Shown: one piece after another, positions 1,755 to 42,105 of the stretch | Numbering within the stretch: the first letter of the stretch is position 1 | Layout of the letters: every line of letters begins with the position of its first letter | NCBI GenBank assembly: GCA_003021745.1 | Contig: PXQY01000112.1 | Location: 1 to 50,790 of the forward strand | Length of the DNA stretch: 50,790 bases | Direction: 5' to 3' | DNA from: Halobacteriales archaeon QH_7_69_31 | Lineage (GTDB): Archaea > Halobacteriota > Halobacteria > Halobacteriales > Haloarculaceae | Made by a program: the position numbers and the translations under genes | Notes under the pieces: generated by a model | Database searches by the model: none | Told to the model about the DNA's origin: nothing | What the model saw: the letters and a program-made list of their open reading frames with translations, nothing else

Positions 1755-1866
1755 ATGACCGTCGCCATGCGGGTGACGCCGACGTCCGGTCCGTACCCGA
1801 GGTGCTCACTGTGACTGTTGTCGTTCCATTGATGGCGTCGCTCGGTTCGTACCCGAGGTGCTCACT
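1755..1866 (+). repeat. two tandem 56-bp units (1755-1810, 1811-1866), each starting with a purQ-like start region
   Basis: Units aligned by eye, 41/56 identical; the 3' CGGTYCGTACCCGAGGTGCTCACT is nearly identical; the next base (1867) starts purQ. Confidence 0.85.
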
Positions 1867-2477
1867 GTGACCGTTGCCGTCATCCGCTTCGGCGGCTCGA
1901 ACTGCGACCGCGACGCCCGGCGGGCGCTCGACCACCTGGGCGTCGACGCTTCTCCTACGGCGACTACCTCCGCGCCGGCGCCATGGCCGCCCACGCCCCC
2001 ATCCTGGAGGAGGTTCGCGAGGCGGCCGCTGACGGCACGCCCGTGCTCGGCATCTGCAACGGCGCCCAGATCGGCTGCGAGGCCGGGCTGACGCCCGGCG
2101 CGTTCACCACCAACGAGAGCGCCCGGTTCCAGTGCGAGCCGGTCCACGTCCGGGTCGAGAACGCCGCCACGCCCTGGACGGCCGCCTACGACGAGGGCGA
2201 GGTCATCGAGCTCCCCATCGCCCACGGCGAGGGCCGCTTCGAGATCGCCGACGACCGCCTCCAGCAGCTGGAGGAGACCGACCGCGTGCTGTTCCGATAC
2301 TGCGAGCCGGATGGCGAGGTCACGGCGGCCGCCGACCCGAACGGCTCGACGGACAACGTCGCCGGCGTGCTCGGGACCGACGACCACGTCGCCGTCCTCA
2401 TGCCGCACCCGGAGCGGGCGACGCTGCCGGACCTCGGCGCGACGGACGGACAGGGCGTGCTGCGGGCGTTCGCCTGA
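1867..2477 (+). pseudogene. purQ: phosphoribosylformylglycinamidine synthase subunit PurQ, frameshifted by an internal deletion near 1949/1950
   Basis: Frame 1 MTVAVIRFGGSNCDRDARRALDHLGVDA, then another frame FSYGDYLRAGAMAAHAPILEEVREAAADGTPVLGICNGAQIGCEAGL...; the segment between LGVDA and GGFSYGDY is missing. Confidence 0.85.
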
Positions 2478-2511
2478 CGGATTACCGACCCGCTCTCACC
2501 GCGTGTGGCTC

Positions 2512-3621
2512 TCAGGTGACCAGCGGCTGGTTGTACGCCGTCTCCTCGGCCATCACGTACTCCCAGGTGGCCTCACACTCACAGGCCACCTGCTCGAACA
2601 CCGACGGGTCCTGCCGGAGGTCGAAGTCCTCGATGGCGGTCTGGACCCGGTCGTCGCAGTCCCCGCAGTTGTGGGGGCCGCGGTCCGAGCCATGGCCGAC
2701 GGGGTCCGACACCACGATGGCGTCGACGTCCGCGGTCGCCGCCAGCACCGCACATACCGACCAGAGCCACGGGGGCCGGTAGCCGCCGTCGTGGTACAGC
2801 TCCTCGACCATCGTGTGCCGCTGGACGTTGCAGGGGTTCATCGAGACGGTGTGACAGCCCTCGACGCCGGCACACCGCCGGATCGAGCGCATCATGTCCG
2901 CGACGGCGTCCGGCTCCGCGAGGAACGGCGGCTTCATGAGGAGGTACGCCTTGACGCCGGCGTCGGCGTCTGCGGTCCCAGCAGCCGGGGTCTCCAAACA
3001 CGCGGCCTCGAACTCGGTGAAGTCGAAGTATTTGTTGACGGCGTCGTGCCGCACTCGATCGGTCGCCGTCTCGAGGCCCACCGCGACGTCGGTATCGAGG
3101 CCTCGCTCGGTGAACTCCCGGACCTTCTCTCGATCGACGAAGTCCGGCAGCGACTCGACGACGATGCGGTCGCGGTCGGCGAACGTCTCGGCGACCGCCC
3201 GGCGGGTCTCGGCGGGGATCTCGCGCTCGTCGAGGAACGAGCCCGACGTGTAGATCTTGACGAGCCCGGCCCGGTCGGGCGCGTCGGGGTCGTCGCCGAG
3301 TCGCTCGCGTTCGTAATCGAGGCACGCATCGAGTTGAGTCACGAGATCCTCGTGGGCGACCGTGCCGCCGTCGACGCTTTCGGCCACGTAGCCGCACATC
3401 GTGCAGCCGCCGGCGCGGGCCCACCGGCAGCCGCCGGGGTTGAGGATGATCGTCAGGGAGTGGTAGACGCCGTCCGGGGTGTTGTCCTCGTCGAGCCACA
3501 CCCGCGTCGGCTCGGTCGGGTCGTAGGTCGTGTCGTTCCGGCTCCGGACCTCCCGCATCACCTCGTTGTGGGCCTCCATGCCCCGGCCCCGCTCGTAGGC
3601 CTCCGGGCTCGGCTGACTCAT
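2512..3621 (-). CDS. archaeosine biosynthesis radical SAM protein RaSEA
   Basis: Radical SAM CxxxxxCxxC (GGCRWARAGGCTMCGY), LKIYTSGSFLDE-like, ..VGHGSDRGPHNCGDCD; matches the haloarchaeal RaSEA family. Confidence 0.85.
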   Translation of the reverse strand: MSQPSPEAYERGRGMEAHNEVMREVRSRNDTTYDPTEPTRVWLDEDNTPDGVYHSLTIILNPGGCRWARAGGCTMCGYVAESVDGGTVAHEDLVTQLDACLDYERERLGDDPDAPDRAGLVKIYTSGSFLDEREIPAETRRAVAETFADRDRIVVESLPDFVDREKVREFTERGLDTDVAVGLETATDRVRHDAVNKYFDFTEFEAACLETPAAGTADADAGVKAYLLMKPPFLAEPDAVADMMRSIRRCAGVEGCHTVSMNPCNVQRHTMVEELYHDGGYRPPWLWSVCAVLAATADVDAIVVSDPVGHGSDRGPHNCGDCDDRVQTAIEDFDLRQDPSVFEQVACECEATWEYVMAEETAYNQPLVT

Positions 3622-3645
3622 TGCCGGCTGGTATCCGGCGCGCGG

Positions 3646-4059
3646 CTAAAGGGATGTCGCCCCGGCGTCGATGGCATCCTCGTTGGCCGGCGGCGCCACC
3701 GCCCGCCACAGCGCCGCGCCGGCCGTGGCGCCGACCGTGTTGACGAGGACGTCGACGGCGCTCGCACTCCGGGAGGGGAGCGGTGCCTGGACCAGTTCGA
3801 CGGCCCCGCCGTAGCACACCGCGGTCCCGGCGGCGAGGAGGAGGGCGCGTCCGTCAGCCCTGAGGAGGCCGTAGCCGACCGCGGCGGCCAGCCCGGCGTA
3901 GGCGACGAGATGCAGGGAGGTCGCGAGCGGGACGCCGAGAATCGACGGCGGCGGGCCCGGCCCGGGGTCCCGGACTGACGCCACGAGGATGAGCGTCGCG
4001 AACGCGCCGACGACGCCCCACCTGACGGCCGGCGCGGCTACGGGGAGTCGTCGGGGCAC
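3646..4059 (-). CDS. VanZ-like membrane protein
   Basis: RWGVVGAFATLILVASVRDP...HLVAYAGLAAAVGYGLL...AVELVQAPLPSRSASAVDVLVNTVGA; GTG start at 4059 or 4074. Confidence 0.7.
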   Translation of the reverse strand: MPRRLPVAAPAVRWGVVGAFATLILVASVRDPGPGPPPSILGVPLATSLHLVAYAGLAAAVGYGLLRADGRALLLAAGTAVCYGGAVELVQAPLPSRSASAVDVLVNTVGATAGAALWRAVAPPANEDAIDAGATSL

Positions 4060-4258
4060 GGCGCAGTCGTTCACCGCGGGCGGCCTTGAACGCTCCGGCA
4101 CGGCAGGACGGCGACGGTCGTCCCCGCGTCGGACATCGAGATGGTGGCTGTCTCGGTCCTCCGTGACGCCCAGCCGCTGGCACACTTCCGTCCGGCGGGT
4201 CGCCCACGGGGCGGTCGGCTGCACGGCGGGGCGTCCGGCCGGCCGCGAGCGGCGGCAG

Positions 4259-4276
4259 GTAACCGTTTCCGGTTAC
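4259..4276. promoter_or_regulatory. inverted repeat GTAACCG-TTTC-CGGTTAC followed by a TATA-like CTATTTA, upstream of the AOR
   Basis: Perfect 7-bp arms read directly. Confidence 0.45.
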
Positions 4277-4294
4277 ATCGCCGCGGCAACTATT

Positions 4295-6160
4295 TACGAA
4301 GGCGTCGACGACGAGGACGCACGGAAGTACATCGGCGCCCGCGGCCTCGGCGTCAAGTACGTCTTCGACCAGGGGCCGGACGTCGACCCCCTCGGGCCGG
4401 ACAACCTGTTGGCGTTCACGAACGGACCGCTGACCGGCACGCAGGTGACGATGAGCGGCCGCATCGCGATCTGTACGAAGTCCCCGCTGACCCACACCGT
4501 CACCGACAGCCACCACGGGGGGTGGTCCGGCGCCCGGCTCAAGTGGGCCGGCTTCGACGGCCTGCTGTTCGAGGGCGAAGCGGACCGTCCCGTCTACGCC
4601 TACGTCGAGGACGGCGAGGTCGAACTCCGGGACGCCTCCCACCTCTGGGGTGCCGGTGTCCACGCCACCCGCGATCGGGTCGAGGCCGACCTCGACGGCG
4701 AGTACGGCAAGGACCTCTCGATCATGGCCATCGGGCAGGCCGGCGAGAACGAGGTGCGGTTCGCCAACATCGTCAACGAGGACGACCGGGCGTCCGGCCG
4801 GGGCGGCACCGGCGCCGTGATGGGCTCGAAGAACCTCAAGGCCGTCGTCGTCCGCGCCTCGACGGACATGCAACAGCCGGCGGACCCGGAGACGTTCAAG
4901 ACGGGCCACAAGCAGGCGATGGAGGTCATCCAGGAATCGGAGGTCACCGCCCCGAACGAGGGCGGGCTCTCCGTCTACGGGACGAACGTCCTCATGAACG
5001 CGACCGAGGAGATGGACGGCCTCCCGACGCGGAACGCGAAGTACACCTCGACGGCCAGCGAGGCCGCCGAGTCGCCGGACGGGCCGGACATCGACGCCGA
5101 GCACGTCTCCGGCGAGAACGTCCGGGAGAACATCCTCGTCGAGGAGCCGACGTGTCACTCCTGTCCCGTCGCGTGCAAGAAGGAGGTCGAGGTCGACGTC
5201 CACCACAAGGGCGAGGACATGAACCTCCGGATGGAGTCCTACGAGTACGAGTCGGCGTGGGCGCTCGGCCCGAACTCCATGAACGACGACCGCGACCAGG
5301 TCGCCGTCATGATCGACCGGTGTAACGACCTCGGGTTCGACACCATCGACGGCGGCAACATGCTCGCGATGGCCATGGAGATGACCGAGAAGGGCTACGT
5401 CTCGGAGGGGATCGAGTGGGGCGACACCGAGGAGATGATCGACATGCTCGAGGCCATCGGTCACCGCGACGGCGACCTCGCCGACGCCCTGGCCGACGGC
5501 GCCGCGGGCGCCGCCGAGCGGTTCGACGCCCACGACTGCCGGCTGGACGTGAAGGGCCAGACGATGCCCGCCTACGACCCCCGCTGCATGAAGGGGATGG
5601 GCATCGCCTACGCCACCTCGAACCGCGGCGCCTGCCACCTGCGCGGCTACACGCCCGCCGCCGAGATCCTGGGCATCCCGGAGAAGGTCGACCCCGTCGA
5701 GTGGGAGGGCAAGGCCGAACTCACCGCGACGTTCCAGGACATGCACGCCATCTCCGACAGCTTCGACATCTGCAAGTTCAACGCCTTCGCCGAGGGCATC
5801 GAGGAGTACGTCCTCCAGTACAACGGCATGACCGGCCGCGACGTCGGCGAGGAGGAACTCATGCAGGCCGGCGAGCGCGTCTGGAACCTAGAGCGGTACT
5901 ACAACAACCTCGTCGGGTTCGACGCCGCGGACGACGACCTGCCGGACCGGTTCGTCGAGGGCGCCGACGAGGCGGTCCCCGGCCAGGGCGGCGTCGAGGG
6001 CAGCCTCGTCGAACTCGACCGGATGAAGGACGCCTACTACGACCACCGCGGCTGGGTCGACGGCGTCGTCACCGAGGAGAAACTCGACGAACTCGACATC
6101 GACGTCGGGCCCGGCACCGACGTCACCGCCGGCGAGGGCGCGGCGCCCGCCGACGACTGA
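4295..6160 (+). pseudogene. aldehyde ferredoxin oxidoreductase (tungsten, AOR family), apparently missing its N-terminal ~25 codons and start
   Basis: YEGVDDEDARKYIGARGLGVKYVFDQGPDVDPLGPDNLL...TMSGRIAICTKSPLT...CHSCPVACKK; no ATG/GTG immediately upstream in frame and promoter-like DNA runs straight into codon ~25. The rest is intact, so it could be expressed from a distant start. Confidence 0.8.
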
Positions 6161-6327
6161 GGATCGAACGCGCGCTTTTTTTCCAGGCCGCCGGGTAGTC
6201 GATGGACGACCAGTACCGGTGTCGTGACCGTTGGACCCCCTCTCGCGTAATTGTTACTGAAACTGTTTACAAGTGCGAACGCAGGCGGTCGTGCGGTTCA
6301 TATCGTTATGACATACAGTGATCACTA

Positions 6328-7416
6328 TCAGTCGAAAGCGTAGAGGTCGCCGGCCCTCGTGGGGACGTAGAGCACGCCCTCGACGGCGACTGGACCGGTG
6401 GTCAACCCGGCGTAGCCGACCTCGCCGGTGTCGTACAGGCGGGTCCCGAACGTGTTCCGCGTCGTGCCGTCGTCGGCGTCGAGGGCGACGAGCGAATTGG
6501 AACGCGGGGTGAACCCCCCGCCCGTGTATACCGTGTCGGCGGCGACGGTCGGGGACACGAGGGTTTCCACGTCCGTCTCGACGCTCCAGCGGCGTTCGCC
6601 GTCCGTGGTGAGCGACGCCACCCGCCCGCCGGTGCCGGCCGCGTAGACGGCGTCGTCGGTGACCGCGACCGGTAGCTCGATGCGGAACACCTCCAGGTCC
6701 TGCCGCCAGCGCTCCTCGCCGGTGGCGGCGTCCAGCGCGAGCAGGACACTGTCCTCGACTCCAAGATAGACGCGGCCGTGTGCGATGGCCGCGATCCCAT
6801 CGGGCTCTACCTCCGTACGCCACTGCTGGTCACCCGTGTCGGCGTCGAGCGCGTACGTCCACTCGGAATCCTTCGCGCTAGCTCCGACGAATACGGACCC
6901 GTCGGCGACCCCCAGGAGGGAAGCGCCCTCATCTTCGGGGGCCGTCCGCCACAGCTCGTCGTCACCGTCGCGCGCGATGACCTGCATCCCGGCGGTTTTG
7001 TAGGTGGTGCCGCCGACGACCCGGGCACCCCGGAAGCGGGCCTTCATTTCCCACTCGTCCGACGAATCCTCAATACGTTCGCCCGTTCGGGCGTCGTTCT
7101 GGTGCGGACCAAACTGGAGTACTCCGGGACTATGGATCAGAATGCCCAGCTCGGACGGTCTACAATTGGCGTAGCGCCACGCCGGTTCCTCCAGGCTGTC
7201 CGGTCCGATCGCGTCGGGGTCGTAGCCGGTGTTGGCGGCGTTGTAGTGTAGGTGTCCCCACTCGGCGTCGGCCGAGAGTTCGACGTCGTGGTCGTGGATG
7301 GTGCGGCCCTTCTCGCAATCGGTGCCCTCGGGACCGAGCTGGAGACAGCCGCCGACACCGAATCCCGTGACGACGCCGGCTGTTCTGAGTGCCGTTCGCC
7401 GACGTATTTTCACCAT
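6328..7416 (-). CDS. PQQ-like beta-propeller repeat lipoprotein
   Basis: Lipobox-like GFGVGGC; repeated YALDADTGDQQW / LALDAATGEERW / VALDADDGTTR motifs. Confidence 0.85.
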   Translation of the reverse strand: MVKIRRRTALRTAGVVTGFGVGGCLQLGPEGTDCEKGRTIHDHDVELSADAEWGHLHYNAANTGYDPDAIGPDSLEEPAWRYANCRPSELGILIHSPGVLQFGPHQNDARTGERIEDSSDEWEMKARFRGARVVGGTTYKTAGMQVIARDGDDELWRTAPEDEGASLLGVADGSVFVGASAKDSEWTYALDADTGDQQWRTEVEPDGIAAIAHGRVYLGVEDSVLLALDAATGEERWRQDLEVFRIELPVAVTDDAVYAAGTGGRVASLTTDGERRWSVETDVETLVSPTVAADTVYTGGGFTPRSNSLVALDADDGTTRNTFGTRLYDTGEVGYAGLTTGPVAVEGVLYVPTRAGDLYAFD

Positions 7417-7633
7417 CTGTGTATCAGCGGGTCCGTCGACGGACGGTTCGATCGGTACGTGTCATAGATCGGGTGTCGGTAGGGTTCTATATATCAAACC
7501 AAGAATAAAAAACGTACCGGCGGTCGCCACGGCGGTTTTCAGATAAGCACTGAGCGGCGAGCCAATGTCTGCCGGCCGATCAACTGACTCCTGGCGGACT
7601 GGAAGGGCGTGACGCTGCGTAGCGGCGTAGAGA

Positions 7634-8286
7634 TTAAGGAAAGATTTGAATAGTTTGAGCCCATATCGTGAGTATGAGAAATGGTCGGCGAAAAGATATC
7701 GAACGACACCTCAGTGAAGCGGAATTAGACGCAAGACTTCGTGTTGCAGACGACCCCGAGATGGTTCGACGGCTCGGGTTCGTCAAAAACCTCTACCAGG
7801 GTGATACGCTCGGCGAGGCCGCCGGTCGCGAGGGAAAGTCCCAACCGACCGGCGCGCGGTGGGCGGAGCGTTGGAACGACGGCGGCGTCAGCGGACTCGC
7901 GCCGGACCACGGCGGCGGGCGACCCTCGAAACTGACCGATGGGGAGCGCCAGCAGCTGCGGGACCTACTCGAGGCCGACCAACCGTGGACGATACAGGAA
8001 GTCCTTCACCTCATTGAAGAAGAATTCGACGTTACATACCATCCAAATTATATATACGAACTCCTACGGTCGCTCGACATTCACTATATAAAACCACGAA
8101 TACCAAACCAACGAGCAGATCTGCCACGCGATCGAGCGCATACGCGCCAATAACCTAAATAGAAACGTCTCCTCGATCGAGGCGTTTTGTTCGGTAGTCC
8201 GGGACGTCTTCGATCGGCTCACCGGGAACGTGCGTGTTGCTGCAAACTGGATCGAACGCTTCTTAAATATTCAAAAGTTATCTTAA
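7634..8286 (+). mobile_element. IS630-type insertion sequence remnant with the central transposase deleted
   Basis: Imperfect terminal inverted repeats TTAAGGAAAGATTTGAATAGTTTGAG / CTTAAATATTCAAAAGTTATCTTAA; N-terminal HTH domain and C-terminal ...DRLTGNVRVAANWIERFLNIQKLS* present, DDE core absent. Confidence 0.75.
7668..8153 (+). pseudogene. IS630 family transposase, N-terminal HTH/winged-helix part (truncated)
   Basis: HLSEAELDARLRVADDPEMVRRLGFVKNLYQGDTLGEAAGREGKSQPTGARWAERWNDGGVSGLAPDHGGGRPSKL...YHPNYIYELLRSL. Confidence 0.8.
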
Positions 8287-8423
8287 GATGGCTGTCGTCA
8301 CGCGGCCCGCGAGCAGAAGTCGAGAGTGCCGGGGGCTTTCTGGATTCCCTACCCCTTATCTGAAGTCTACCGTCGCCGCGACCGGACGGACTTTGACAAG
8401 CATTGCTGAACTCCAGCAGTTAA

Positions 8424-8759
8424 TCGCGAAGCCACCGTCAGCAGGTATTACGAACTGGTCGACGAGTGCAGCGACGACGAATTTGTCGAACCGTTCGCCG
8501 AGGACGACCGCTACGAGCGGCCCGGTCGGGCCGCAATCGAGGGCCGCGAGGCGCTGGGGAGTTCTCCGAGGAGGGGTGGCCGCTGAGGCGGGCCGCCACG
8601 AACTCGACGCCGACGCCGACGGCGCGACGGTCGCCGCCCGGGGGGTTTTCCGGCCGCCAGGGCGACGAGACGGTCAGCTTCGCGTTGTCGGACTTCCACG
8701 AGTTCGACGGCGACCGCATCGCCCGGCGGTACACACTCACCGACCGCGAAGCGGTGTAG
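8424..8759 (+). pseudogene. NTF2/SnoaL-like small protein, broken over three frames
   Basis: EATVSRYYELVDECSDDEFVEPFAEDDRYERPGRAAIEGREALG, then GRHELDADADGATVAARG, then FSGRQGDETVSFALSDFHEFDGDRIARRYTLTDREAV in different frames. Confidence 0.65.
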
Positions 8760-8848
8760 CGGCCGGAAGGGGGCCCGCCGGACCCCTCAACGACCGCACT
8801 GATTGCAGGAGTCGGTGGCTTTCTCGGGCGCCGGGCCATCGCGCCTGT

Positions 8849-9421: not shown

Positions 9422-9423
9422 CC

Positions 9424-9690: not shown

Positions 9691-9694
9691 GGGC

Positions 9695-10655: not shown

Positions 10656-10658
10656 CCG

Positions 10659-11248: not shown

Positions 11249-11631
11249 CGGTCCGAGAGCCGGATGCCGTCCTCGACCAGCCGGGCGTTCCGCTCGCGGT
11301 CGAGCCGGTCGGCGAGCCAGTCGTGTTCGTACAGCTGTGCGATGAGGTCCGCGTACAGGTTCCGCCACGCCAACGCGAAGACTGGCGACTGGCCCCACGC
11401 GCGGAGTTCCGGGACGAACGCGTCGAACCGCTCGCGGCGGGCCTCGAAGTCCTCGATGAGGTCCAGCACGTCGGCCGCCGCGTCGCCGTCGTCGTCGGCC
11501 GCCTCCAGGAGGCGGGCGAGTCGCTCGTTGTAGCCCTCGACGGCCCGTTCCATGTCGGCGGCGGCGGTCGCGTCCTCCTCGGGGAGTGCGTCCAACAGCG
11601 GCCCGGGGACGCCCAGCTCGATGTCGTCCAT
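11245..11631 (-). CDS. conserved haloarchaeal hypothetical protein
   Basis: [96 protein letters not shown]... Confidence 0.75.
   Translation of the reverse strand: MDDIELGVPGPLLDALPEEDATAAADMERAVEGYNERLARLLEAADDDGDAAADVLDLIEDFEARRERFDAFVPELRAWGQSPVFALAWRNLYADLIAQLYEHDWLADRLDRERNARLVEDGIRLSDR
11438..11496. repeat. 59-bp perfect direct repeat, copy 1 (probable source, in the small gene downstream of arcS)
   Basis: cgggcctcgaagtcctcgatgaggtccagcacgtcggccgccgcgtcgccgtcgtcgtc identical to 12654-12712. Confidence 0.95.
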
Positions 11632-11680: not shown

Positions 11681-13321
11681 CTACCGCGCCGTGCAGTGGC
11701 GGACGTCGACGGCGACCCCGCGGGTCGACTCGACCATCGCCTCGCCGTGGCAGGCCGCCCGGCCGACGGCGAACGCCGCGGGGCCCTCGACGAGGACCTC
11801 GTCGCCGGGCCGGATGGCCTCGTCGGCATCGAGCACGCCGGGTGCGAGGACGCTGCCGCTGGGGACGAAGTCGTCGATCCTGACGGTCTTCGTCGGCGCG
11901 TCGCTGTCCCGCCAGGCCCGGGCGCCGGCCAGTGTCAGCGAAAGCGTCCCGTACTGGGCGACCATCGTGGCGAGCTGGTCGCCGCCGGCGTCCCTGACGC
12001 GGAGCTTCGGGTAGCGGCCCGTGGTCTCGGCGTCGGGGCCGAACACCTGGTCGCCGGCGCCGTCGCCGAACTGGACGTCGGCGATGGCCCGGACGGTCGC
12101 CTGCTCGCGGGCCGACATCCGGTAACTGTCCTGGCCCGCGAGGGCGTCCTCCAGCGCGGCCAGCGACGCGTCGGTCGTGGGGTGGTCGGCGACGGTGTAC
12201 TCGAAGTCGATGCCCGTCCTGGCGGCGGCGCGCTCGCAGACCTCGCGGTACGCCTCGGGCGGGACGTGGGCGACGTGGCGGTCGTAGTCGGCCCGCTCCA
12301 GGTACCGCGCGAGGACGCTCGCGACGAACTCGATCTCGGTCTCGGTCCACCGGCCGGTGACGACGCTGTCGTAGTGCTGGGCGGGGTAGGTGGTCTCCAG
12401 CTCGTTCGGGACGACGCCGATCGGCGAGGACATCGAGACGACGTGGCCCCGATAGGCGATGGCGTCCGTGAACTGCCGGTGGCTCCGGGAGTCGCTGTAG
12501 GGCTTCCGCGCCGAACAGGGGACGACCACCAGCGGGGCGTCGAGCCGCCGCCGGTACCGGCTGGTCACCCGGTCGGCGAACCGCTGGATCTCGGCCCGCC
12601 GGAGCGTGTCGTCGGTCGCCGCGAGCAGTTCGTTCCGGCGGAACACCGGCGTTCGGGCCTCGAAGTCCTCGATGAGGTCCAGCACGTCGGCCGCCGCGTC
12701 GCCGTCGTCGTCCCGGGAGAACTCCGCGATCGGCGTCCGACAGGCCTCGCAGGCACACGGCAGTTCCGCGAGGTCCTCGAGGAACGTCTCGCCGTCGGTG
12801 GTGAGGTAGACGCCCTCCAGCCCGCGGGCCCGGGCGCGTTTCTCGTCGAGGAGGTCGACGCCGGCGTACGCGAGGGTGGCGGCGTTTGCGGGCGTCGCGA
12901 CGCCCGGGAGGTACAGGGCCGCGTCGGCCGGGATGGCGTCCTTGACCGCGAGGAGGGCGTCGACGAACGCCTCGGCGTGGCCGACATAGCCCGTGGCGCC
13001 GGCCAGGACGTAGGCGTCCGTCCCGTGGTCGTCGGCGGTGGCCGGTGACACCACCGCGGCGCTGGGGTAGTCGACGTCCGGGACGTCCGGCGCGAACGCC
13101 GCCGCGACCGGCGGCTCCGTCCCCGGCGGCAGCGCGCGGTGCGGCAGCACCGTCAGTGACGCGGGGTCGTCCTCGGGTACCTCCCGGGGCTCGTGCCACC
13201 GGCTTCCGGCGTCATCGAGGACGTCATCGACCAGCGCCGGCGTGCCGAGCGGGTCGGCGAGTCGTAGTTCGCCGCGACGGGCCGCCGCGTCGCGGGCGTG
13301 GACCTCGAAGTGCTCCGTCAT
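11681..13321 (-). CDS. arcS: archaeosine synthase subunit ArcS (TGT paralog), with an anomalous central replacement
   Basis: [33 protein letters not shown]...[34 protein letters not shown] (PUA end); [21 protein letters not shown]...[20 protein letters not shown]. Confidence 0.88.
12654..12712. repeat. 59-bp perfect direct repeat, copy 2 (inside arcS)
   Basis: Identical 59 bp; encodes [20 protein letters not shown] in both genes. Confidence 0.95.
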
Positions 13322-13405: not shown

Positions 13406-13892
13406 ATGGATCGCGAGGCCTTCGCCGGGCGCATCGACCACACCGTCCTCGGGCCGGAGACGACCCCGGGCGACGTCGAGACGGTCCTTTCCGCGGCGGC
13501 TGCCCATGGGATGAACGCGTGCATTCCGCCCTGTTATGTGGCGGACGCGGCCGAGTCCGCGCCGAACGTCACGGTCGTCACGGTGTGTGGCTTCCCGCAC
13601 GGCCAGGCGTCGGATCGTCGAGGCGCCGCTGCTCTCGGATCCGGAACTCCGGACCGCCTGCGAACTGGCGGCCGACGCGGACGCCGACTTCGTCAAGACG
13701 GCGACCGGGTTCTCGGGGGGCGGCGCGGCGGTCGCGGACGTGGAGGTGATGGCCGAATACCTCCCGGTGAAGGCCAGCGGCGGCATCGGGAGCTTCGAGG
13801 CGGCCGTCGCGATGCTCGAGGCCGGCGCCGACCGCATCGGCGCCTCCTCGGGCGTGGAGATCGTCGAGGGGTACGACGCCGAGGCGTTCTGA
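13406..13892 (+). pseudogene. deoC: deoxyribose-phosphate aldolase, internally deleted and frameshifted near 13604-13614
   Basis: [49 protein letters not shown]...[12 protein letters not shown], then another frame [61 protein letters not shown]... Confidence 0.85.
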
Positions 13893-15232: not shown

Positions 15233-15250
15233 CACCGCCGGCCGCCCCGG

Positions 15251-15367
15251 GTCACGTGCGGTCGGGTCCTCCCACTCGCCGATGCCCGTCGGGCCGGTCA
15301 CGTGCGGTCGGGTCCTCCCACTCGCCGATGCCCGTCGGGCCGGTCACGTGCGGTCGGGTCCTCCCAC
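15251..15367 (+). repeat. 46-bp tandem repeat (2 full plus one partial copy) overlapping the CDF gene 3' end
   Basis: gtcacgtgcggtcgggtcctcccactcgccgatgcccgtcgggccg at 15251 and 15297, partial at 15343. Confidence 0.95.
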
Positions 15368-16240
15368 GTCCCCGACGTCGGGCCTCGCCTCCAGGGCGTC
15401 GACGAGGTCGGACTCGATGTCGTGGGCCTCGACGACGGTCAACTCGCCGTCGACCTCGAGGTGGGCCTCGACCTCCAGGTCGGTGCCGTCGTAGAAGACG
15501 GCGACGTCGTGGACGCCGCGGACGTCCGGGTGTGCGCGGAGCGGTTCGACCACCCGACGCCGCTCGGCCTCTGACGGGGCGGCACCGACCAGGTACGTGA
15601 CGTTCTCGCGGGCGATGTCGCCACCCTGGTGGACGACGAGCAGGCTGACGACGCCGCCGGCGACGGCGTCGAGCAAGGGGTACCCCAGGAGGACGCCGAC
15701 GACGCCGACGAGGGCGGCGATGGAGGTGTAGACGTCGTTGCGGCAGTCGACGGCCAGTGCCGCGAGCGCCGCCGAGCCCACGACCGCGTTCACCCGTCTG
15801 GTGTACCGGTAGAGCAGCGCCATGTCCGCCATGGCGAACAGGAGCGCCCCGACCAGCACCGGGCTGAACGCGACGGTCGGGCCCTCGAGGACGCTCCGGG
15901 CCGATTCGTAGAGGAGGACGAGCCCGAGCAGAACGACGACGCCGGCGACGAAAAGCGCCGCGAGCGGGCCGACGCGCTGGTGGCCGTGGGGGTGGGCGTC
16001 GTCGGGGTCGGTGTAGACGTTCCGGCCCCACACCAGCACGACGACGCTGGCGAGGAGGTCGCCGACCGAGTGGGCGGCGTCGGCCACGAGCGCGACGGAG
16101 CCGAACGCCAGGCCCGCGCCGGCCTCGACCAGTATCTTCGCGAGGTTGCCCGCGACGTTGACGGCACCGGCTCGGGTGAACCGACGCCTGGCGGCGCCGG
16201 TGTCGGGGGCCGCCTCGGCCGCCGGCGTCGCGTCGCGCAT
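15344..16240 (-). CDS. cation diffusion facilitator family transporter (altered C-terminus)
   Basis: GSVALVADAAHSVGDLLASVVVLVW...HPHGHQRVGPL...AVDCRNDVYTS; hydrophobic segments and C-terminal cytoplasmic domain. Confidence 0.88.
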   Translation of the reverse strand: MRDATPAAEAAPDTGAARRRFTRAGAVNVAGNLAKILVEAGAGLAFGSVALVADAAHSVGDLLASVVVLVWGRNVYTDPDDAHPHGHQRVGPLAALFVAGVVVLLGLVLLYESARSVLEGPTVAFSPVLVGALLFAMADMALLYRYTRRVNAVVGSAALAALAVDCRNDVYTSIAALVGVVGVLLGYPLLDAVAGGVVSLLVVHQGGDIARENVTYLVGAAPSEAERRRVVEPLRAHPDVRGVHDVAVFYDGTDLEVEAHLEVDGELTVVEAHDIESDLVDALEARPDVGDVGGPDRT

Positions 16241-18319: not shown

Positions 18320-19108
18320 ATGGGTTGCGTTCGGGAACCGCCCGCGAGGGCCGCTATCGCAACGCTTTCGACGCTGTACCGCCGCCGGCCGCCGGTGACC
18401 GAGGCGACCGTCGCCGCCCTCGCGCCCTGGATGGCCGCCGGCGGCGCCCTGTACGCGCTGTTCCAAGTCGAAGCCGTTCCGGGCGCCGTCGCCCAGCTCG
18501 TCGGGTCGCCGGCGGTGTACGGGACCGTCGCCGTCGCCGCGGGCCTGACCGGGGCCGCCGTCGCCGAGCGACCGGCCGACGCCTGGACGCCGCGGTCCGC
18601 CCCTGGCATCCTCGCCGGCACCGGTACGGCGGTGCTTTCGGGCGCGCTCGCTACCGCCGCCGTAACGGCGCCCAGCCTGGGTTCGGCCGCCGTCGCGCGC
18701 TCGGTGGCCATCCTCGCGGCAGCCGCCCTTGCGACGGCAGGGGTCTGGGCCGGGGTCCGCCGGCTCGATCGGGGCCGGGCGACCGGCCTCGTCGGCCTCC
18801 TCGCCGTCTTCGGCCACGCCCTCGACGGCGTCTCCACGGCCGTTGGCTACGACCTCCTAGGTTTCGGCGAGCAGACGCCGCTGTCCCGGGTCCTCATCGA
18901 GGCCGGCGCCGCCCTGCCGGCGCCGGCCGCCGTCGGCGACGCCTGGCTGTTCGTCCTCGTCAAGCTGCTGGTCGCCGCGGTCGTCGTCGGGCTGTTCGAC
19001 GACTACGTCCGCGAGGAGCCGGCCGAGGCCTACCTGCTCCTGGGGCTGGTCGCGGCGGTCGGGCTCGGCCCCGGCGTCCACAACGTGGTGCTGTTCGCGA
19101 TCGCGTGA
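18320..19108 (+). CDS. DUF63 family membrane protein
   Basis: VTEATVAALAPWMAAGGALYALFQ...FGHALDGVSTAVGYDLLGFGEQTPLSR...GPGVHNVVLFAIA. Confidence 0.75.
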   Translation: MGCVREPPARAAIATLSTLYRRRPPVTEATVAALAPWMAAGGALYALFQVEAVPGAVAQLVGSPAVYGTVAVAAGLTGAAVAERPADAWTPRSAPGILAGTGTAVLSGALATAAVTAPSLGSAAVARSVAILAAAALATAGVWAGVRRLDRGRATGLVGLLAVFGHALDGVSTAVGYDLLGFGEQTPLSRVLIEAGAALPAPAAVGDAWLFVLVKLLVAAVVVGLFDDYVREEPAEAYLLLGLVAAVGLGPGVHNVVLFAIA

Positions 19109-21326: not shown

Positions 21327-22167
21327 CTACAGCCCTCCGACGATGGCAGTCTGCATCGCGTCGCTGTTGAACGCCTCCCCGACGTCCCCGTCCGGCGTCA
21401 GCAGGATCAGGCCGGCCGAGCCGTCGACCAGGTCGGCGAACTCCCCGATAGCAGCCTCCGCCGCGGCCTGCGCCCGGCGGCCGTCCTCGAGGTGGTCTAC
21501 GGCCCGCCGGGCGAGCGTCACGCGGGCGATGTCCTCGCCGGCGCCGGTCGCGGAAGCGCCGCCGGCCGGCGTCGCCGTCGGTCGCGACCGCGCCGACCGT
21601 GTCGTGGTCGCGGTCCGGCGGCACGTTGCCGCTCTCGTCGCCGCCCACACTGTCACCGCCAGCGGCCACGCCCGCGTCGGGGTCCCGACCGAACCGCTCG
21701 CTCACCCACCGGGCGTGGGTGAGCCGGTCGCCGTCCGGGCGGTCATCGATGTCGGCCCACCGCTCGCGGGTCTCCGCAGTCCGGAGGTCGACGCCGGTGT
21801 CGACGCCGGCGGCCTCGGCGAGGTCGACGGCGTGGACGCCGGCGACGAGGACGTGCGGCGTCTCCACCTTGACGGCCCGGGCGACGTCGACGGCGTGCTC
21901 GACGCCGGGCATCCCGCAGGCGGCGCCGACCCCGCGGTCCTCGGTCATCAGGCCGGCGTCGGTCCGAACGTGGCCGTCCGTCTGGACGGCGCCGCCAACC
22001 CCGGCGTTGAACCGGGGGTCCGACTCGAGCGCCCGGACCGTCGTACAGACCGCGGCCGTGGGCGTGTCGGCGTCGGTGCCGGCCGCGGCGGACGCATCGA
22101 GCGCCCGCTGTCTGTCCGTCGGCTCGTCGGGTGGCGAGCCGGCGCCCCCGTGAGCGATGACGCGCAT
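21327..22167 (-). pseudogene. isoaspartyl peptidase/L-asparaginase (Ntn-hydrolase type), frameshifted by an internal deletion near 21560-21575
   Basis: MRVIAHGGAGSPPDEPTDRQ...FNAGVGGAVQTDG...DHDTVGAVATDGD, then another frame ATPAGGASATGAGEDIARVTLARRAVDHLEDG...LILLTPDGDVGEAFNSDAM. Confidence 0.85.
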
Positions 22168-26302: not shown

Positions 26303-27109
26303 CTACGCCTCGAGGTCGGCCGCCGCGAGCAGCTCGCCGAGTCGGTCCCGGGCGTCGGCGTCCGGCGGCCGGTGGGGCGAGCGGGCGCGGCCGGCGGGCA
26401 CACCGCGCTCCCGCATCGCCCACTTCAGCCCGGGCACGCCGAACTCGGCGGTGACGGCCCGGTTCAACTCGACGAGCGCGGCGTTCAGCCGGCGCGCCCG
26501 GGTTGCATCACCAGCCTCGTGGGCCGCGGTCACCTCCGCGAGTGCCGCCGGCGCCAGGTTGGCGAGCCCGAGGACGCCGCCCGTGCCACCGGTAGAAAGC
26601 GCCTGGGCGAGCAGTCCGCCACTGCCCACCAGGAGGTCGAACTTCGCGTCGGCGGTCCGTCGACGCGTCCGCAGAAAGGCCGCCAGGTCGCCGCTGGAGT
26701 CCTTCATGCCGACGACCGACGGATGGCCGGCGAGCCGGCCGACGGTCGCGGGCTCCAGCCGGACGCCGGTGTGGGTCGGCACGGCGTACAGGTACACCGG
26801 GAGCGGCGACGCGTCGGCGACCTCGCGGTAGTACGCCTCGATGGCGGCCTGGTCGTGGTCGTAGTAGAACGGCGTGACGATCATCGCGGCGTCGGCACCG
26901 ACCGGGACCGAGGCCGCATCGACGACGGTCTCGACGACCGCCGCGCGTTCGTCGGCCGTCATGAGTTCCGCCTCGCTGTTCGAGCCGCACGGCACGAGGA
27001 AGTCGACGCCGCGGGCCTCGACCCACGCGACGACCTCGCGGAGGCGGTCGTGGTCGACGTCACCCGACTCGTCGAACGGGGTGACGAGCGGCGGTCCGAT
27101 GCCCTCCAT
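26303..27109 (-). CDS. dihydrodipicolinate synthase/N-acetylneuraminate lyase family protein with an in-frame internal deletion
   Basis: MEGIGPPLVTPFDESGDVDHDRL...VPCGSNSEAELMTADER...VYLYAVPTHTGVRL...VVGMKDSSGDL; SVPVGADAAMIVTPFYY lacks the usual intervening strand/helix. Confidence 0.82.
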   Translation of the reverse strand: MEGIGPPLVTPFDESGDVDHDRLREVVAWVEARGVDFLVPCGSNSEAELMTADERAAVVETVVDAASVPVGADAAMIVTPFYYDHDQAAIEAYYREVADASPLPVYLYAVPTHTGVRLEPATVGRLAGHPSVVGMKDSSGDLAAFLRTRRRTADAKFDLLVGSGGLLAQALSTGGTGGVLGLANLAPAALAEVTAAHEAGDATRARRLNAALVELNRAVTAEFGVPGLKWAMRERGVPAGRARSPHRPPDADARDRLGELLAAADLEA

Positions 27110-27792: not shown

Positions 27793-28113
27793 ATGGAGCG
27801 TGAGCCGACGGCGTACAGCCGGCCGCTCGTCGTGTTCGGCCTCGGCGCCGTGCTGGTGGCCGACCTGGCCGTCGGGATACCGTCCCCCGCGTTCGTCGGC
27901 GCCGGGGCGGCGGTGCTTTTCATCTCGGGGGTGGTCCACCTCGCCGCCGGCGAGCGGCGGGCCGCCGCCGGCTGGGGCATGTTCGGACTCGCGCTGGGGT
28001 TCTTCCGCGTCCTGGACGGGGGTTCGGACGCGCTCGTACTCCTCGCCGTCGGGTCGCTGGTCGTGGCCGGGCTGGCGTTACAGATCAGCGAACGCGTCGA
28101 GGACCGGCTCTGA
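27793..28113 (+). CDS. small membrane protein
   Basis: Four hydrophobic segments in 106 aa. Confidence 0.65.
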   Translation: MEREPTAYSRPLVVFGLGAVLVADLAVGIPSPAFVGAGAAVLFISGVVHLAAGERRAAAGWGMFGLALGFFRVLDGGSDALVLLAVGSLVVAGLALQISERVEDRL

Positions 28114-28531
28114 GCCGCGAGGCCGAACGGAGTGAGGCCTCGGAATGAGCGAGCGGGAGGACCGACCGTAGGGAGGGACGACACGCGAGCCGCGAGCCGC
28201 GAGCGGAGCGAGCGCTTCGGACTGTGCGAGCGGTGAACGCAGCGACCCGCGAGCCGCGCGGTCGACCATCGGGAGACCGCGGAAGGAGCGAGCTGCGAGC
28301 CGGGCGGTCTCCGCCCGAGAACGCCCGAGCGGTCCGGACGGACTGGCCCCGCGCGCGGCGAGCCTTCCACCGGCGGTGGACTGCGGTCTTGGCCGTCCGC
28401 CTGGAGACGCCGCCGGCAACGGTCTGGCGGCCACATTCTACGGCCTCGCGAGTTCGAGCGGACCGGCGACCACGGCGTGGACATCGGTGGGGCTCGACGG
28501 ATAGCCCGGCGAGTCGACCCCCGTCGAGGGC

Positions 28532-34627: not shown

Positions 34628-34628
34628 G

Positions 34629-36140
34629 ATGGGAGTCGAGGAGCGCACCACCGACATGCTCGTCGTGGGCAGCGGCATCGCGGGCTGTGCCGCCGCCCTG
34701 GCGGGCGCCCGCGCCGGCGCCGACGTCACCCTCGCCACGAAGGCGGCCCGACCGGAGGACTCGACGTCCTTCTGGGCGCAGGGCGGCGTCGCCGTCGCCC
34801 GCGGCGACCCCGAAACTCTGAAGGCCGACATCGTCGAGGCCAGCGACGGCCTCGCCGACCCCGAGGCGGTCGACGTCCTCGTCTCCGAGGCCGACGACGC
34901 CGTCCGGGACGTCTTCGTCGACACGCTCGACGTCGACTTCGACGGCGACGAGGCGTTCGACTACGGCCGCGAGGCCGCCCACAGCGAGGCGCGGATCCTC
35001 CACGTCGACGCCGCCACCGGCCGCCACCTGCTCGCGCCGTTCCTGAACCACCTCGCCGACCACGACCGCGTCCAGGTCCTGGAGGACACGGCGGCGCTGG
35101 ACCTCCTCACCCACGAGGGCCGCGTCCACGGCGCCATGATCGAACTTGACGACGAGTGGGCGCCCTGCTTCGCCGGCGCCACGGTGCTGGCGACCGGCGG
35201 CATCGGCGCCTGCTACCGCCGCTCGACCAACCCGCCGACCGCGACCGGCGACGGCATCGCGATGGCCGCACTCGCCGGCGCCGACGTCGCCGACATGGAG
35301 TACGTCCAGTTCCACCCGACCGCGTTCGCAGGTGAGGGCGAGATCGGGGACGGCCAGGGCACCTTCCTGCTCAGCGAGGCCGTCCGCGGCGAGGGCGCCG
35401 TGCTCCGGAACGCAGAGGGCGAGCGGTTCATGCCCGACTACCACCCGGACGCCGACCTCGCGCCCCGCGACGTTGTCGCCCGCGCTGTCAAGCAGGAGCG
35501 CGAGCGGACCGGCGCGGTCCGGCTCGACGTGTCACCGCTTTCGTTCGACGACGAGTTCCCGGACCTGGCCGACGAGTGCCAGCGCCGGGGCATCGACCCC
35601 GCCGACGGCATCCCCGTCGCGCCCGCCCAGCACTTCCTCTGTGGCGGCATCGACGTCGACACCGAGGGCCGCACCTCCCTGGACCGGCTGTTCGCGGTCG
35701 GCGAGTGTGCCAGGACCGGCGTCCACGGCGCCAACCGCCTGGCCTCCACGAGCCTGCTCGAGTCCCTTGTCTGGGGCCTCCGCGCCGGCGAGGCCGCCGC
35801 CGGCTTCGACGCCGAGCGGGTCGAGGCCCCGGACCTGCTCGACCGCGACCCCGCGCTGCCCGACACCTTCGCCGACGAGAAGTTCGTCCGGCTCCGCCGG
35901 GTCATGACCGACTCGGTCGGCATCACACGCTCGACGGCGGACCTCGACCGGGCGGCGAGCGTGCTCCGCCGGCTGAAGGGCGAGGTCGACGCCTACACCC
36001 GGACGCGGACGAGCCGCTCGCTGTACGAACTCCGCGGCGCGGCCGTGACCGCCCTGCTCGTCGCCCGCGCCGCCGCGGACAACGACGAGTCCCGCGGCTG
36101 CCACCACCTGGAGGAGGGCGCGGCCGTTGACGCCGATTGA
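34629..36140 (+). CDS. nadB: L-aspartate oxidase
   Basis: DMLVVGSGIAGCAAALAGA, SFWAQGGVAVA, HGANRLASTSLLESLVWG. Confidence 0.95.
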   Translation: MGVEERTTDMLVVGSGIAGCAAALAGARAGADVTLATKAARPEDSTSFWAQGGVAVARGDPETLKADIVEASDGLADPEAVDVLVSEADDAVRDVFVDTLDVDFDGDEAFDYGREAAHSEARILHVDAATGRHLLAPFLNHLADHDRVQVLEDTAALDLLTHEGRVHGAMIELDDEWAPCFAGATVLATGGIGACYRRSTNPPTATGDGIAMAALAGADVADMEYVQFHPTAFAGEGEIGDGQGTFLLSEAVRGEGAVLRNAEGERFMPDYHPDADLAPRDVVARAVKQERERTGAVRLDVSPLSFDDEFPDLADECQRRGIDPADGIPVAPAQHFLCGGIDVDTEGRTSLDRLFAVGECARTGVHGANRLASTSLLESLVWGLRAGEAAAGFDAERVEAPDLLDRDPALPDTFADEKFVRLRRVMTDSVGITRSTADLDRAASVLRRLKGEVDAYTRTRTSRSLYELRGAAVTALLVARAAADNDESRGCHHLEEGAAVDAD

Positions 36141-36948
36141 GCGCTCGCGGGTCGAGCGCTGGCTCCGGGAGGACCTCGGCCACCACGACGTCACCAACGA
36201 CGTCCCCGGCCGGACCGTGGGCCGGCTCGTCGCGACGGCCGAGGGGGTCGCGGCCGGCCTCGACGCCGCCGCGGCGGTGTTCGAGTACCTCGACGTCGCG
36301 GTAACCGACTGCGTCGACGCCGGCACGGCCGTCAACGCCGGCGACGTCCTCCTCCGCGTCGAGGGCCCCGCCGCCGCCGTCCTCCGGGGCGAACGGGTCG
36401 CCGTGAACGTCGCCGGCCACGCCGCCGGCGTCGCCACGCGGACCGGGCGGGCCGTCGAGGCCGCCCGCAGCGTCGCCGACGACGTCCGCGTGGCCGGCAC
36501 CCGGAAGACCACGCCCGGGCTCCGGGGCCTCGAGAAGCGTGCCATCGCCGCCGGCGGCGGGGACACCCACCGGCTCGACCTCTCCCACATGGTGATGGTG
36601 AAGGACAACCACGTCGCGGAACTCGGCCTCGAGACCGCCATCGAGCACTTCCGCGACCGCGCCTCCTTCGCGACGAACCTCGAGGTCGAGGTCGAGTCCC
36701 CGGCCGACGCCGCCCGCGCCGCCGAGGCGGGCGCCGACGTAGTCCTCCTCGACAACATGACGCCCGAGGAGACGGCCCGCGGGGTCGAGGCCATCGACGG
36801 CGACGCGCTCGCAGAAGCCTCCGGCGGGATCACGGTCGAGACCGTCCCCGACTACGCGGCCACGGGCGTCGATGTCGTCTCGCTGGGGAGTCTCACCCAC
36901 TCCGCACCGGCGCTCGACCTCTCGTTCCGGACCGGGTCCGTCGACTGA
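36127..36948 (+). CDS. nadC: nicotinate-nucleotide diphosphorylase (carboxylating)
   Basis: REDLGHHDVTND, AGTRKTTPGLRGLEKRA, HMVMVKDNHV; overlaps the nadB 3' end, TTG start. Confidence 0.94.
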   Translation: MTPIERSRVERWLREDLGHHDVTNDVPGRTVGRLVATAEGVAAGLDAAAAVFEYLDVAVTDCVDAGTAVNAGDVLLRVEGPAAAVLRGERVAVNVAGHAAGVATRTGRAVEAARSVADDVRVAGTRKTTPGLRGLEKRAIAAGGGDTHRLDLSHMVMVKDNHVAELGLETAIEHFRDRASFATNLEVEVESPADAARAAEAGADVVLLDNMTPEETARGVEAIDGDALAEASGGITVETVPDYAATGVDVVSLGSLTHSAPALDLSFRTGSVD

Positions 36949-37027
36949 CTGGGTCGGTCGAGTGAAACGGTCGGTCGACTGAAGGGTCGATCGACCGATC
37001 GGAGAGCCCGCCTTGGGGCTCCGGGCC

Positions 37028-37264
37028 TCAGTCGTTGACGGCGCCGGAGAAAGTCAGCACGGCGCCGACGGCGGCGACGACCAGGCCGCCGAGCCGGACC
37101 AGTTGCCACTGCATCGACTCCTCATCGCTACCGCCCATGAGGGACCAGCCGGAGTCCTGCTGGGCTTCCATCAGTTCCATGTGACCGTACACCAGGACGA
37201 TGGCGCCCACGACGAGGGCGACCAGTCCGAGTATCATGAGCGCGTCCAGGTTGTTGTCACTCAT
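37028..37264 (-). CDS. small membrane protein (DUF-type)
   Basis: Two hydrophobic helices in 78 aa. Confidence 0.65.
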   Translation of the reverse strand: MSDNNLDALMILGLVALVVGAIVLVYGHMELMEAQQDSGWSLMGGSDEESMQWQLVRLGGLVVAAVGAVLTFSGAVND

Positions 37265-37408
37265 TGCAGTCGCACCCAATCGGGTCGGGGAAATAAACAT
37301 TCTGGCCCAGTGGTAGGATACAGGTCAGTCGGTGCGGGCGACTCCGGGTCTGACACGGCGGTTCGCGCGTTGCCGGCTGCACGAGGCCCGACCGGGGCCG
37401 GGTCGTGC

Positions 37409-38854
<1,446 letters not shown>

Positions 38855-38864
38855 AGTGGCACCT

Positions 38865-39605
38865 TCACTGGTGTCGATCAGCAGTCTCTGTGCTAACCGC
38901 CCGCGCGCCGTCCACGGTCTCCCGGACGGCCTCGACGCCCTCGTCGTGAACCAGATCGCCCACGATCACGGTGTCCGCCCGCTGCCGCATCTCGCGGGCC
39001 GACTCGTAGTCGCGGATCCCGCCGCCGTAGAAGACCGAGGCGTCGTCCGTGCCGTCGGCGGCCGCCCGCACAATGTCGGGGTCGCCGTAGGTCCCGGAGT
39101 ACTCGACGTAGACGATCTCCTGGCCGAGCGCGCGGTCGGCGATTTCGGCGTAGGCGGCGACCTCGTCCGGCTCGAGGTCGCAGTCGGCGTCGGTGTACTC
39201 CGCGACGGACGCCTCGGGGTTCATGATGACGTAGGCCTCGGTGTACGTGCGCCGCCAGTCGATCCGGTCGTCGAGCCGCGCCCACTCCTTGTGGGCGCCC
39301 ACGGTCCAGAATGGGTCGCCGGCGTTGAGCACGATCGGGATGAGGTAGCCGTCCAGGCCGTCCCGGTGGACCACGCTCGCGACGTTGGAGGGCTCGATGT
39401 ACACCGGGACGTCGTGGGCCGCCGTCGCCTCGACCACCCGCGCCATCTTCGCCTCGGTCATGCCGGTGGTACCGCCGATCTCGAGGGCGTCGGTGCCGGT
39501 GGCGCAGACGTCCTCGAAGGTCTCGCCCGCCCGGAGCGTCTTGTCCGGGTCGATCTTGACGACGTGGTCCCAGTCGGCCCAGGGGACGCCCATAGGCGGG
39601 CCCAA
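38865..39605 (-). CDS. phosphoglycerol geranylgeranyltransferase (GGGP synthase)
   Basis: [59 protein letters not shown]. Confidence 0.92.
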
Positions 39606-39704
39606 CCCGCGGGTCGCTAAAACAACTTCGGGTTCGCGTCCCGGGGACGCGCCGGCGTCGTGGGTCTTAGCTCGTCTCTCGGGGCCGCCGCTGGGTCTCG
39701 CCGG

Positions 39705-42105
39705 TCACGAGCCGGCCGCCGCGTCGGCGGTGACCGTCGCCTGCCACTCGCGGATGCGGTCCGCCGAGACCCCCTGGACGTCGTCGGCGACGGCCTCGGC
39801 GTCGGCGCCCCGGAGGTCATCCAGGGACTCGACGCCGGCCCGGGCGAGCTTGTCGGCCGTCTTCTCGCCGACGCCCTCGAGGTCCTCCGCCGCGCCGGGG
39901 CAGCGGCAGCGAGTACTCACAGTCGGGGTACCGGGTACAGCCGACGAGCCGGGAGCCGTTCCGGAGCCGCTTTATCGCCAGCTCGCCGTCGTGCGCTTCG
40001 GCGGCTTCACCGCCTCCGCCTCGCGGCGACTCCGTCGCCGCGCTCGCCCCACAGTCCGGACACGTCCCGATCACGCGGTCATCGGTTTCGTCGGCGTCCT
40101 GGGCCTCACAGCGGGGACAGCCATGGACGAACGTGCTCCGGCCGGCCAGCATCTTCACGTGCCACAGGTCGTGGTCGTCGCAGCGCTCGTCCAGCACCGT
40201 CGGCTCGCCCTGGTTCGGTAACGGCAGCGTGTACTCGCAGTCCGGATAGCCGTCGCAGCCGACGAAGTACGAGCCCTGCCGGGACTGCCTGACGAGCAGA
40301 TCCTCGCCGCAGTCCGGACACGGCCCAAGCGTCCGGTCGGCCTTCATCGACTCCTGGAGGTGCTCGCCGATGGCCTTCCGGGAGTCGTGGAGGTCCTCGA
40401 AGATGGCCGAGAGCATCTCGCGGGACGCTTCGGTGACCTCCTCGAGGTCGGCGTCGCCCTCGGCGATGGCGCGCATGTCGGCCTCGAGCTGGGCCGTCAT
40501 GTCCTCGTCGACGATGCGGTCGGCGAACTTCTCGGCGGCCTCGACGACGCCCATCGCGAGCGCCGTCGGCCGTGGCGGGTCGCCTTCGACGTAGCCCCGG
40601 TCGTACAGCTTCTGGAGGAGGTTGTGTCTGGTCGACTTCGTCCCGAGCCCCCGGTCGGCCATCTCCTCGATGAGCCGGGATTGGCCGCGGCGCCGGGGCG
40701 GCTGGGTCTCCTTGGCCTCCAGCCGGACGTCGGACACGTCGAGGACGTCGCCCTCCTCGACGGCGGGGACGTAGTTTTCCGCGGTCGATCCGTAGGGGTA
40801 GACGGCGTGGTAGCCGGGCTCGACCAGGCGCTTGCCGTTGGCCTTCAGCAGGCGGTCGTCGGCCGCGCTGACCACCTTCAGGTGTTCCCACTCGGCGGCG
40901 TCGGCGACGGTGGCGAAGAACCGCCGGACGACGAGTTCGTAGACCCGCCACTCGTCGTCGGATAGTTCCTGCCGGCCGGGGACCTCGCCCGTCGGGTGGA
41001 TGGGCGGGTGGTCGGTCGTCTCCTCGTCGCCCGCCGTCGGCTCGACGTCGCCGTCGAGAAGCGTTTGGGCGTCCTCGTCGAACGGGTGGTGGCCCACGAA
41101 CGATTCGAGGAGGTGCGCCGGGTCGAGGTCGTCCGGGTACACCGTGTTGTCGGTCCGGGGGTACGTGACGTAGCCGGCGGTGTACAGCTCCTCGGCGACG
41201 CTCATCGCCCGCTGGGCGGACAGCCCGAGCGACCCGGCGGCGCTGATGTAGGCCGTGGTGTCGAACGGCGCCGGCGGCGCATCGGTCCGCCGGCGGCGGT
41301 TCACCGACCGGACGACCGCCTCCCCGGCCTCGGTGAGGTCCGCGTGGACGGCCTCCGCGGCCGCCTCCTCCCAGACCCGTTCGGTCTCGGTGCCGTCCTC
41401 GCGGTGGAAGTACTGGGCTTCGAAGGCCTCCTCGGCGCCGAGGTCGGCGAACAGCTCCCAGTAGTCGTCGGGCTCGAACGCCCGTATCTCCCGCTCGCGG
41501 TCGACGATCAGCTTCAGGGTCGGCGACTGCACCCGACCGACGGAGATGAAGTCCTCGCCGAGCCGGCCGGCCGACAGCGAGAGAAACCGGGTCAGCGCCG
41601 CGCCCCACAGCAGATCGATGACCTGGCGGGCCTCGCCGGCGGCCGCCAGGTCGACGTCGAGGGCGTCGGGGTGGGCGAAGGCGTCGGTCACCTCCGTCTG
41701 GGTGATCGACGAAAAGCGCACCCGCCGCGTGGGGACGTCGGTGACGGACTCTATGAGTTCGTGGGCCTCCTTGCCGATGAGTTCGCCCTCCCGGTCGTAG
41801 TCGGTGGCGATGACCGCCTCGTCGGCCGCGTCGGCCAGTTCCTCCAGCGTGCGGACGATGTTCTCCTGGGTCGGCGTCTTCACGACGTCGGCGCCGACCA
41901 GCTCGACCGGCTGGACGTCCCGCCAGTCCGAGTATTCCGGGGGGAAGTCGACGCCGACGACGTGGCCGGACAGGCCCACGCACCGCCGGTCGCCCCAGCG
42001 GTAGACGTTGACGCCGTTCCGCCGCTCGACGGACGCCGCCCCCTCCGAGAGGATGTCGGCGATGCGTCGCGCGGCGTCGTCCTTCTCGGTGACGATGAGT
42101 TCCAC
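39705..42105 (-). pseudogene. topA: DNA topoisomerase I (type IA), 3' end frameshifted near 39893-39905
   Basis: VELIVTEKDDAARRIADIL... YVTYPRTDNTVYP ...three Zn ribbons... CEYSLPLPRRGG, then another frame AAEDLEGVGEKTADKLARAGVESLDDL...VQGVSADRIREWQA (HhH end). Catalytic core intact. Confidence 0.85.

What the first reader, a model, noticed from the sequence alone, without database searches (positions are those of the whole stretch)
1755..42105. Window-wide pattern of local deletions, filler insertions and short tandem duplications in housekeeping genes
Seen: purQ, deoC, isoaspartyl peptidase and topA each read in two frames around a missing segment; DapA-like and gpmI lack conserved segments in frame; AOR lacks its 5' end; arcS has a segment replaced by 59 bp from the next gene; purQ and the CDF gene carry 56-bp and 46-bp tandem units at their ends. 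Neighbouring genes (purC, icd, thrC, hmgA, nadA-nadB-nadC, the ABC operon) look intact. About one third to one half of the deletions keep frame, roughly what random lengths would give, so they do not look selected for function. Inference: either a consensus/assembly artefact, or a lineage with a high rate of microhomology or template-switching rearrangement. If real, this is an unusual genome-instability phenotype.
Basis: partly seen in the sequence, partly recalled or inferred. Interest (0 to 1): 0.85.

Follow-up and report, generated by a model that had tools for sequence, protein, structure and literature searches.

The report
Assembly errors mimicking gene decay
The missing chunks in housekeeping genes are really in this draft archaeal sequence, but they occur across its contigs, break ribosomal proteins that no cell can lack, and are absent from its relatives, so they are almost certainly assembly errors rather than an unstable genome.

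Summary
The window is one whole contig of a 135-contig, 2.2 Mb, 72.9%-complete haloarchaeal draft genome. Congeners confirm sharp private losses of 64-159 bp in purQ, arcS, deoC, an asparaginase-family gene, a DapA-like gene, gpmI and topA, plus a truncated AOR 5' end. The arcS lesion contains a 59-bp exact copy of sequence 1.2 kb away; a 46-bp exact tandem sits by the CDF gene.

The same lesions occur on other contigs: 19 automatic calls in 96.5 kb of coding against 9 in 374.9 kb of ten congeners (p about 8e-8); frame-changing breaks are 9 against 0. Five of 16 curated lesions keep frame (chance 1/3), against 9 of 9 in congeners. Small frame-changing gaps are not in excess. The only copies of ribosomal proteins uS5 (about 59 residues missing) and uL6 (frameshifted) are broken, which a living cell should not tolerate.

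Best reading: local assembly error in a draft, not genome instability. One item was misread: the 56-bp tandem at purQ is natural. It encodes two overlapping mini-ORFs between purS and purQ, a feature shared by congeners and found in other genera.

The parts
1949..1950 (+). purQ: 64 bp missing, frameshift
   Evidence: 9 of 9 relatives agree on 64 bp; two reading frames; base-level alignment
1755..1870 (+).
   Evidence: repeat period 56 or 62 bp at the same place in congeners; mini-ORFs read
4295..4305 (+). AOR (aldehyde ferredoxin oxidoreductase): 5' end, about 22 codons, missing
   Evidence: homology to all relatives compared starts here; AFOR_N profile starts at position 15
11438..11496 (.). 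source of the 59-bp copy found inside arcS
   Evidence: exact repeat at distance 1216
12654..12712 (-). arcS: segment replaced by the 59-bp copy, net loss 114 bp, frame kept
   Evidence: 10 of 10 relatives; exact repeat
13606..13614 (+). deoC: 158 bp missing, frameshift
   Evidence: DeoC family
15250..15375 (.). 46-bp exact tandem x2.7 at the 3' end of the CDF transporter gene; about 79 bp longer than in relatives
   Evidence: relatives G001 and G010 79 bp shorter; unit absent from fetched relatives
21563..21572 (-). asparaginase/isoaspartyl-peptidase gene: 95 bp missing, frameshift
   Evidence: G011 and G002 orthologues; Asparaginase_2
26899..26900 (-). DapA-like gene: 66 bp missing, frame kept
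   Evidence: G011 only; Pfam DHDPS match split in the window protein, whole in G011
38414..38423 (-). gpmI (2,3-BPG-independent phosphoglycerate mutase): 159 bp missing, frame kept
   Evidence: 4 of 4 relatives; iPGM_N match broken
39887..39888 (-). topA: 143-155 bp missing, frameshift
   Evidence: 9 of 9 relatives; two frames

Best explanation
The lesions are local assembly errors in a draft assembly. At many thinly covered or tangled places the assembler or gap-closing step most likely joined contig ends without the roughly 30-180 bp between them. Sometimes it put in a wrong short stretch (the 59-bp copy in arcS) or a wrong number of tandem copies (the 46-bp unit). Misjoins between co-occurring strains could be part of it. 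The organism's real genes are presumably intact. Shown: the lesions exist, are private to this assembly, occur on its other contigs, ignore reading frame and hit the only copies of universal ribosomal proteins. Inferred: the exact software step, short reads and low coverage.
For: Same lesion class on other contigs of the draft. 19 calls in 96.5 kb coding against 9 in 374.9 kb of ten congeners, and 9 against 0 frame-changing. 5 of 16 curated lesions in frame, against 9 of 9 in congeners. Only copies of uS5 and uL6 in the assembly are broken. Small frame-changing gaps not in excess. Published description of local assembly errors, duplicated sequence at joins and wrong repeat counts (PMC7111523). 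A similar frame-changing break in rpoA1 of another draft, G011.
Against: No reads or independent assembly of the same population could be examined. The 59-bp templated filler also fits a real template switch. Missing segments are not notably GC-rich or strongly folded, so no sequence reason for dropout is shown. Only 20 of the 134 other contigs were compared.
Confidence: 0.94

Rival explanations
1. The lineage really has a high rate of microhomology- or template-switch-mediated rearrangement, and these are genuine recent deletions, filler insertions and duplications.
For: Sharp junctions; a 59-bp exact templated filler and an exact 46-bp tandem; lesions private to this genome.
Against: The only copies of uS5 and uL6 are broken. 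Frame is kept only at the chance rate, so selection has not acted. Junction overlaps vary from none to a few bases and differ by relative, so an excess of microhomology is not shown.
Confidence: 0.03
2. Ordinary pseudogene decay in a reducing genome.
For: Many broken genes in a draft of 2.2 Mb, smaller than most congeners.
Against: Decay should bring many 1-2 bp frameshifts; these are not enriched (9.0 per 10 kb against 5.6-16.9). Ribosomal proteins and topA are among the hit genes, while neighbouring genes are whole.
Confidence: 0.01
3. The lesions are natural variants of functional proteins in this species.
For: Some of the losses keep the frame (arcS, gpmI, DapA-like, uS5, one in SpoVR).
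Against: Eleven of 16 curated lesions shift the frame, and relatives agree with each other on the full length at most sites.
Confidence: 0.01

Closest known systems
Local assembly errors in metagenome-assembled genomes (Chen et al. 2020, Genome Res., PMC7111523)
   Same: Incorrect local sequence inside otherwise good scaffolds, broken protein-coding genes, duplicated sequence at joins, wrong repeat numbers.
   Different: The paper identifies them from reads, which were not available here; the density in this draft is high.
Microhomology-mediated or template-switch rearrangement
   Same: Sharp deletions, some with a short templated filler.
   Different: Here indispensable single-copy genes are hit and there is no frame bias; excess junction microhomology was not shown.
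Reductive pseudogene decay
   Same: Many broken genes in one genome.
   Different: No excess of small frameshifts, and essential genes are not spared.

Membership tests
Local assembly error in a draft genome | The junction lacks read support | not testable with these tools
   No reads available
Local assembly error in a draft genome | Lesions are private to one assembly and occur on many of its contigs | tested here: met
   20 other contigs sampled
Local assembly error in a draft genome | Lesions ignore reading frame and gene importance | tested here: met
   5 of 16 in frame; uS5 and uL6 broken with no other copy
Local assembly error in a draft genome | Duplicated stretches or wrong repeat numbers occur too | tested here: met
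   59-bp exact copy and 46-bp tandem; but no firm excess of local repeats on other contigs
Microhomology-mediated or template-switch instability | Junction microhomology above chance | tested here: inconclusive
   Overlaps from none to a few bases, dependent on the relative used
Microhomology-mediated or template-switch instability | Indispensable genes keep an intact copy | tested here: not met
   No intact uS5 or uL6 in the assembly
Reductive pseudogene decay | Excess of small frameshifts | tested here: not met
   9.0 per 10 kb in the window against 5.6-16.9 in congeners

The most novel reading that the evidence does not exclude
A living haloarchaeal lineage suffers a very high rate of mid-size deletions with templated fillers, tolerated through many genome copies per cell, so that broken and intact copies of essential genes coexist and the assembly caught broken ones.
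Probability: 0.03. Interest if true: 0.85.

Novelty: not a real feature. Interest (0 to 1): 0.12.

Why it matters
This draft stands for its species in a genome collection, so its broken genes can be mistaken for pseudogenes, gene loss or new proteins, and may lower its completeness estimate. The comparison used here (mid-size private losses, random frame, essential genes hit, no small-indel excess) is a read-free way to recognise such drafts.

Tried and rejected
GC or hairpin dropout as the cause: missing segments average the 63rd percentile for GC and the 58th for folding energy, no clear signal.

General short-indel error: no excess.

Junctions 2472-2519 and 18332-18379: dropped as natural intergenic variation, because G007 lacks the extra sequence or relatives disagree on its length.

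8755-8803: G007 and G011 carry about 900 bp more there, in G011 with a whole extra ORF; this could be natural gene content, so it is left out of the count.

tRNA synthetase (PF00133) and AlaRS searches gave no clear new lesion. RpoA1 gave no hit in this draft.

Excess of local exact duplications outside the window: some exist in other contigs and also in congeners, so no firm excess.

Rfam found nothing in the window.

Full report
What the window is. It is the whole of contig C103 of a genome of 2,203,208 bases in 135 contigs, 72.86% complete, 0.25% contaminated. Twelve congeners are held, two of them single-contig genomes. Contigs C26 and C27 of congener G011 are largely syntenic with the window, so each suspected gap could be checked against relatives at roughly 75-89% DNA identity.

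Checking the observation. I aligned the window to fetched DNA of congeners and kept breaks where relatives agree on the length. purQ lacks 64 bp (9 of 9 relatives), arcS 114 net (10 of 10), deoC 158, gpmI 159 (4 of 4), topA 143-155 (9 of 9). The asparaginase-family gene lacks 95 bp against two relatives and the DapA-like gene 66 bp against one, with the Pfam profile agreeing for the latter. The AOR homology begins abruptly, with about 22 codons missing. The arcS lesion holds a 59-bp exact copy of 11438-11496. The 46-bp tandem unit at 15250-15375 is in no relative's DNA that I fetched. icd and the nad genes look whole.

The rest of the genome. I took 275 kb from twenty other contigs and 1.2 Mb of the complete congener G002. 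At protein level this genome has 19 automatic calls of missing segments in 96.5 kb of aligned coding sequence. Ten congeners treated the same way have 9 in 374.9 kb, all in-frame losses of 13-19 residues. Frame-changing breaks are 9 against 0. At DNA level, sharp deletions of 40-300 bp are 10 in 96.9 kb against 1 in 373 kb. The automatic calls include some doubtful or double ones; after removing those and adding lesions seen only at DNA level I keep 16 (7 in the window, 9 elsewhere), of which 5 keep the frame, as chance predicts. The AOR truncation is not in this count.

What is hit. On contig C17, ribosomal protein uS5 lacks about 59 internal residues and uL6 is frameshifted. A profile search of the whole assembly finds no other copy of either. 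Of six congeners searched the same way, all six have uL6 above the family cut-off and five have uS5, the sixth (G008) having uS5 cut by a contig break. purK and a SpoVR-family gene are each hit twice, and an HflX-type GTPase and a carboxyltransferase once. From general knowledge uS5 and uL6 are universal and indispensable, so a lineage with these as its only copies should not live.

Why not decay or instability. Small frame-changing gaps in the window (9.0 per 10 kb) lie inside the range of the congeners (5.6-16.9). The excess is therefore confined to losses of about 30-180 bp, and it ignores reading frame and gene importance. That is the pattern expected if contig ends were joined without the sequence between them. 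A published account of metagenome curation describes local assembly errors, duplicated sequence at joins and wrong repeat counts, and suspects one common assembler in particular (PMC7111523). A back-of-envelope gap count shows that a few hundred gaps in 2.2 Mb would fit roughly five-fold short-read coverage; this is inference, as neither read type nor coverage is known. Missing segments are not notably GC-rich or folded. The draft of G011 shows a similar frame-changing break in rpoA1, so such errors are not unique to this draft, only commoner in the parts compared.

What was misread. The 56-bp tandem at the start of purQ is natural. Between purS and purQ lie two mini-ORFs of 19 codons (1755-1814 and 1811-1870), the stop codon of each overlapping the next start as GTGA. 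Congeners G003, G008 and G011 show tandem repeats at the same place with periods of 56, 56 and 62 bp, lengths of the form 3n-4 that such overlaps require. Similar mini-ORFs are seen in G005, G007 and G077 (two copies) and in G001 and G010 (one); G002 has none and G004 a different one. Outside the genus they occur in G247, G296, G017, G057 and G088. Peptides such as MTVATTITTLCSHTRWSL and MTVAVSMTTTLCSHTGWSL recur. Part of that likeness may come from the ribosome-binding site and the copied start of purQ, so a functional peptide is not shown.

Verdict. I put local assembly error at 0.94. Raw reads would settle it.

Noticed in passing
window 1755-1870 (also L244, L249, L250, L252, L254, L255): One or two overlapping mini-ORFs of about 18-21 codons lie between purS and purQ in most congeners and in several other haloarchaeal genera; each stop overlaps the next start, and similar peptides (for example TLCSHTRWSL at the end) recur. 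Possibly coupled leader peptides; part of the likeness may come from the ribosome-binding site and start codon.
   Followed up: partly
window 28112-28307: Purine-rich GAGCGAGCG-type repeat with about 60 similar places in this draft and few in the congeners' DNA held.
   Followed up: partly
window 49230-49960: A 63-bp tandem array (4.6 copies) followed by a stretch that recurs at several places in G002 and on contig C4 of this draft.
   Followed up: partly
G011:C15:35710-36445 (not fetched): rpoA1 of the congener draft G011 is split over two frames with about 33 residues missing, like the lesions studied here.
   Followed up: no
G008:C3:2-205 and G008:C73:12-143 (not fetched): In draft G008 the uS5 gene is cut by a contig break over about the same residues (74-160) that are missing in this genome (91-149); this may be coincidence.
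   Followed up: no
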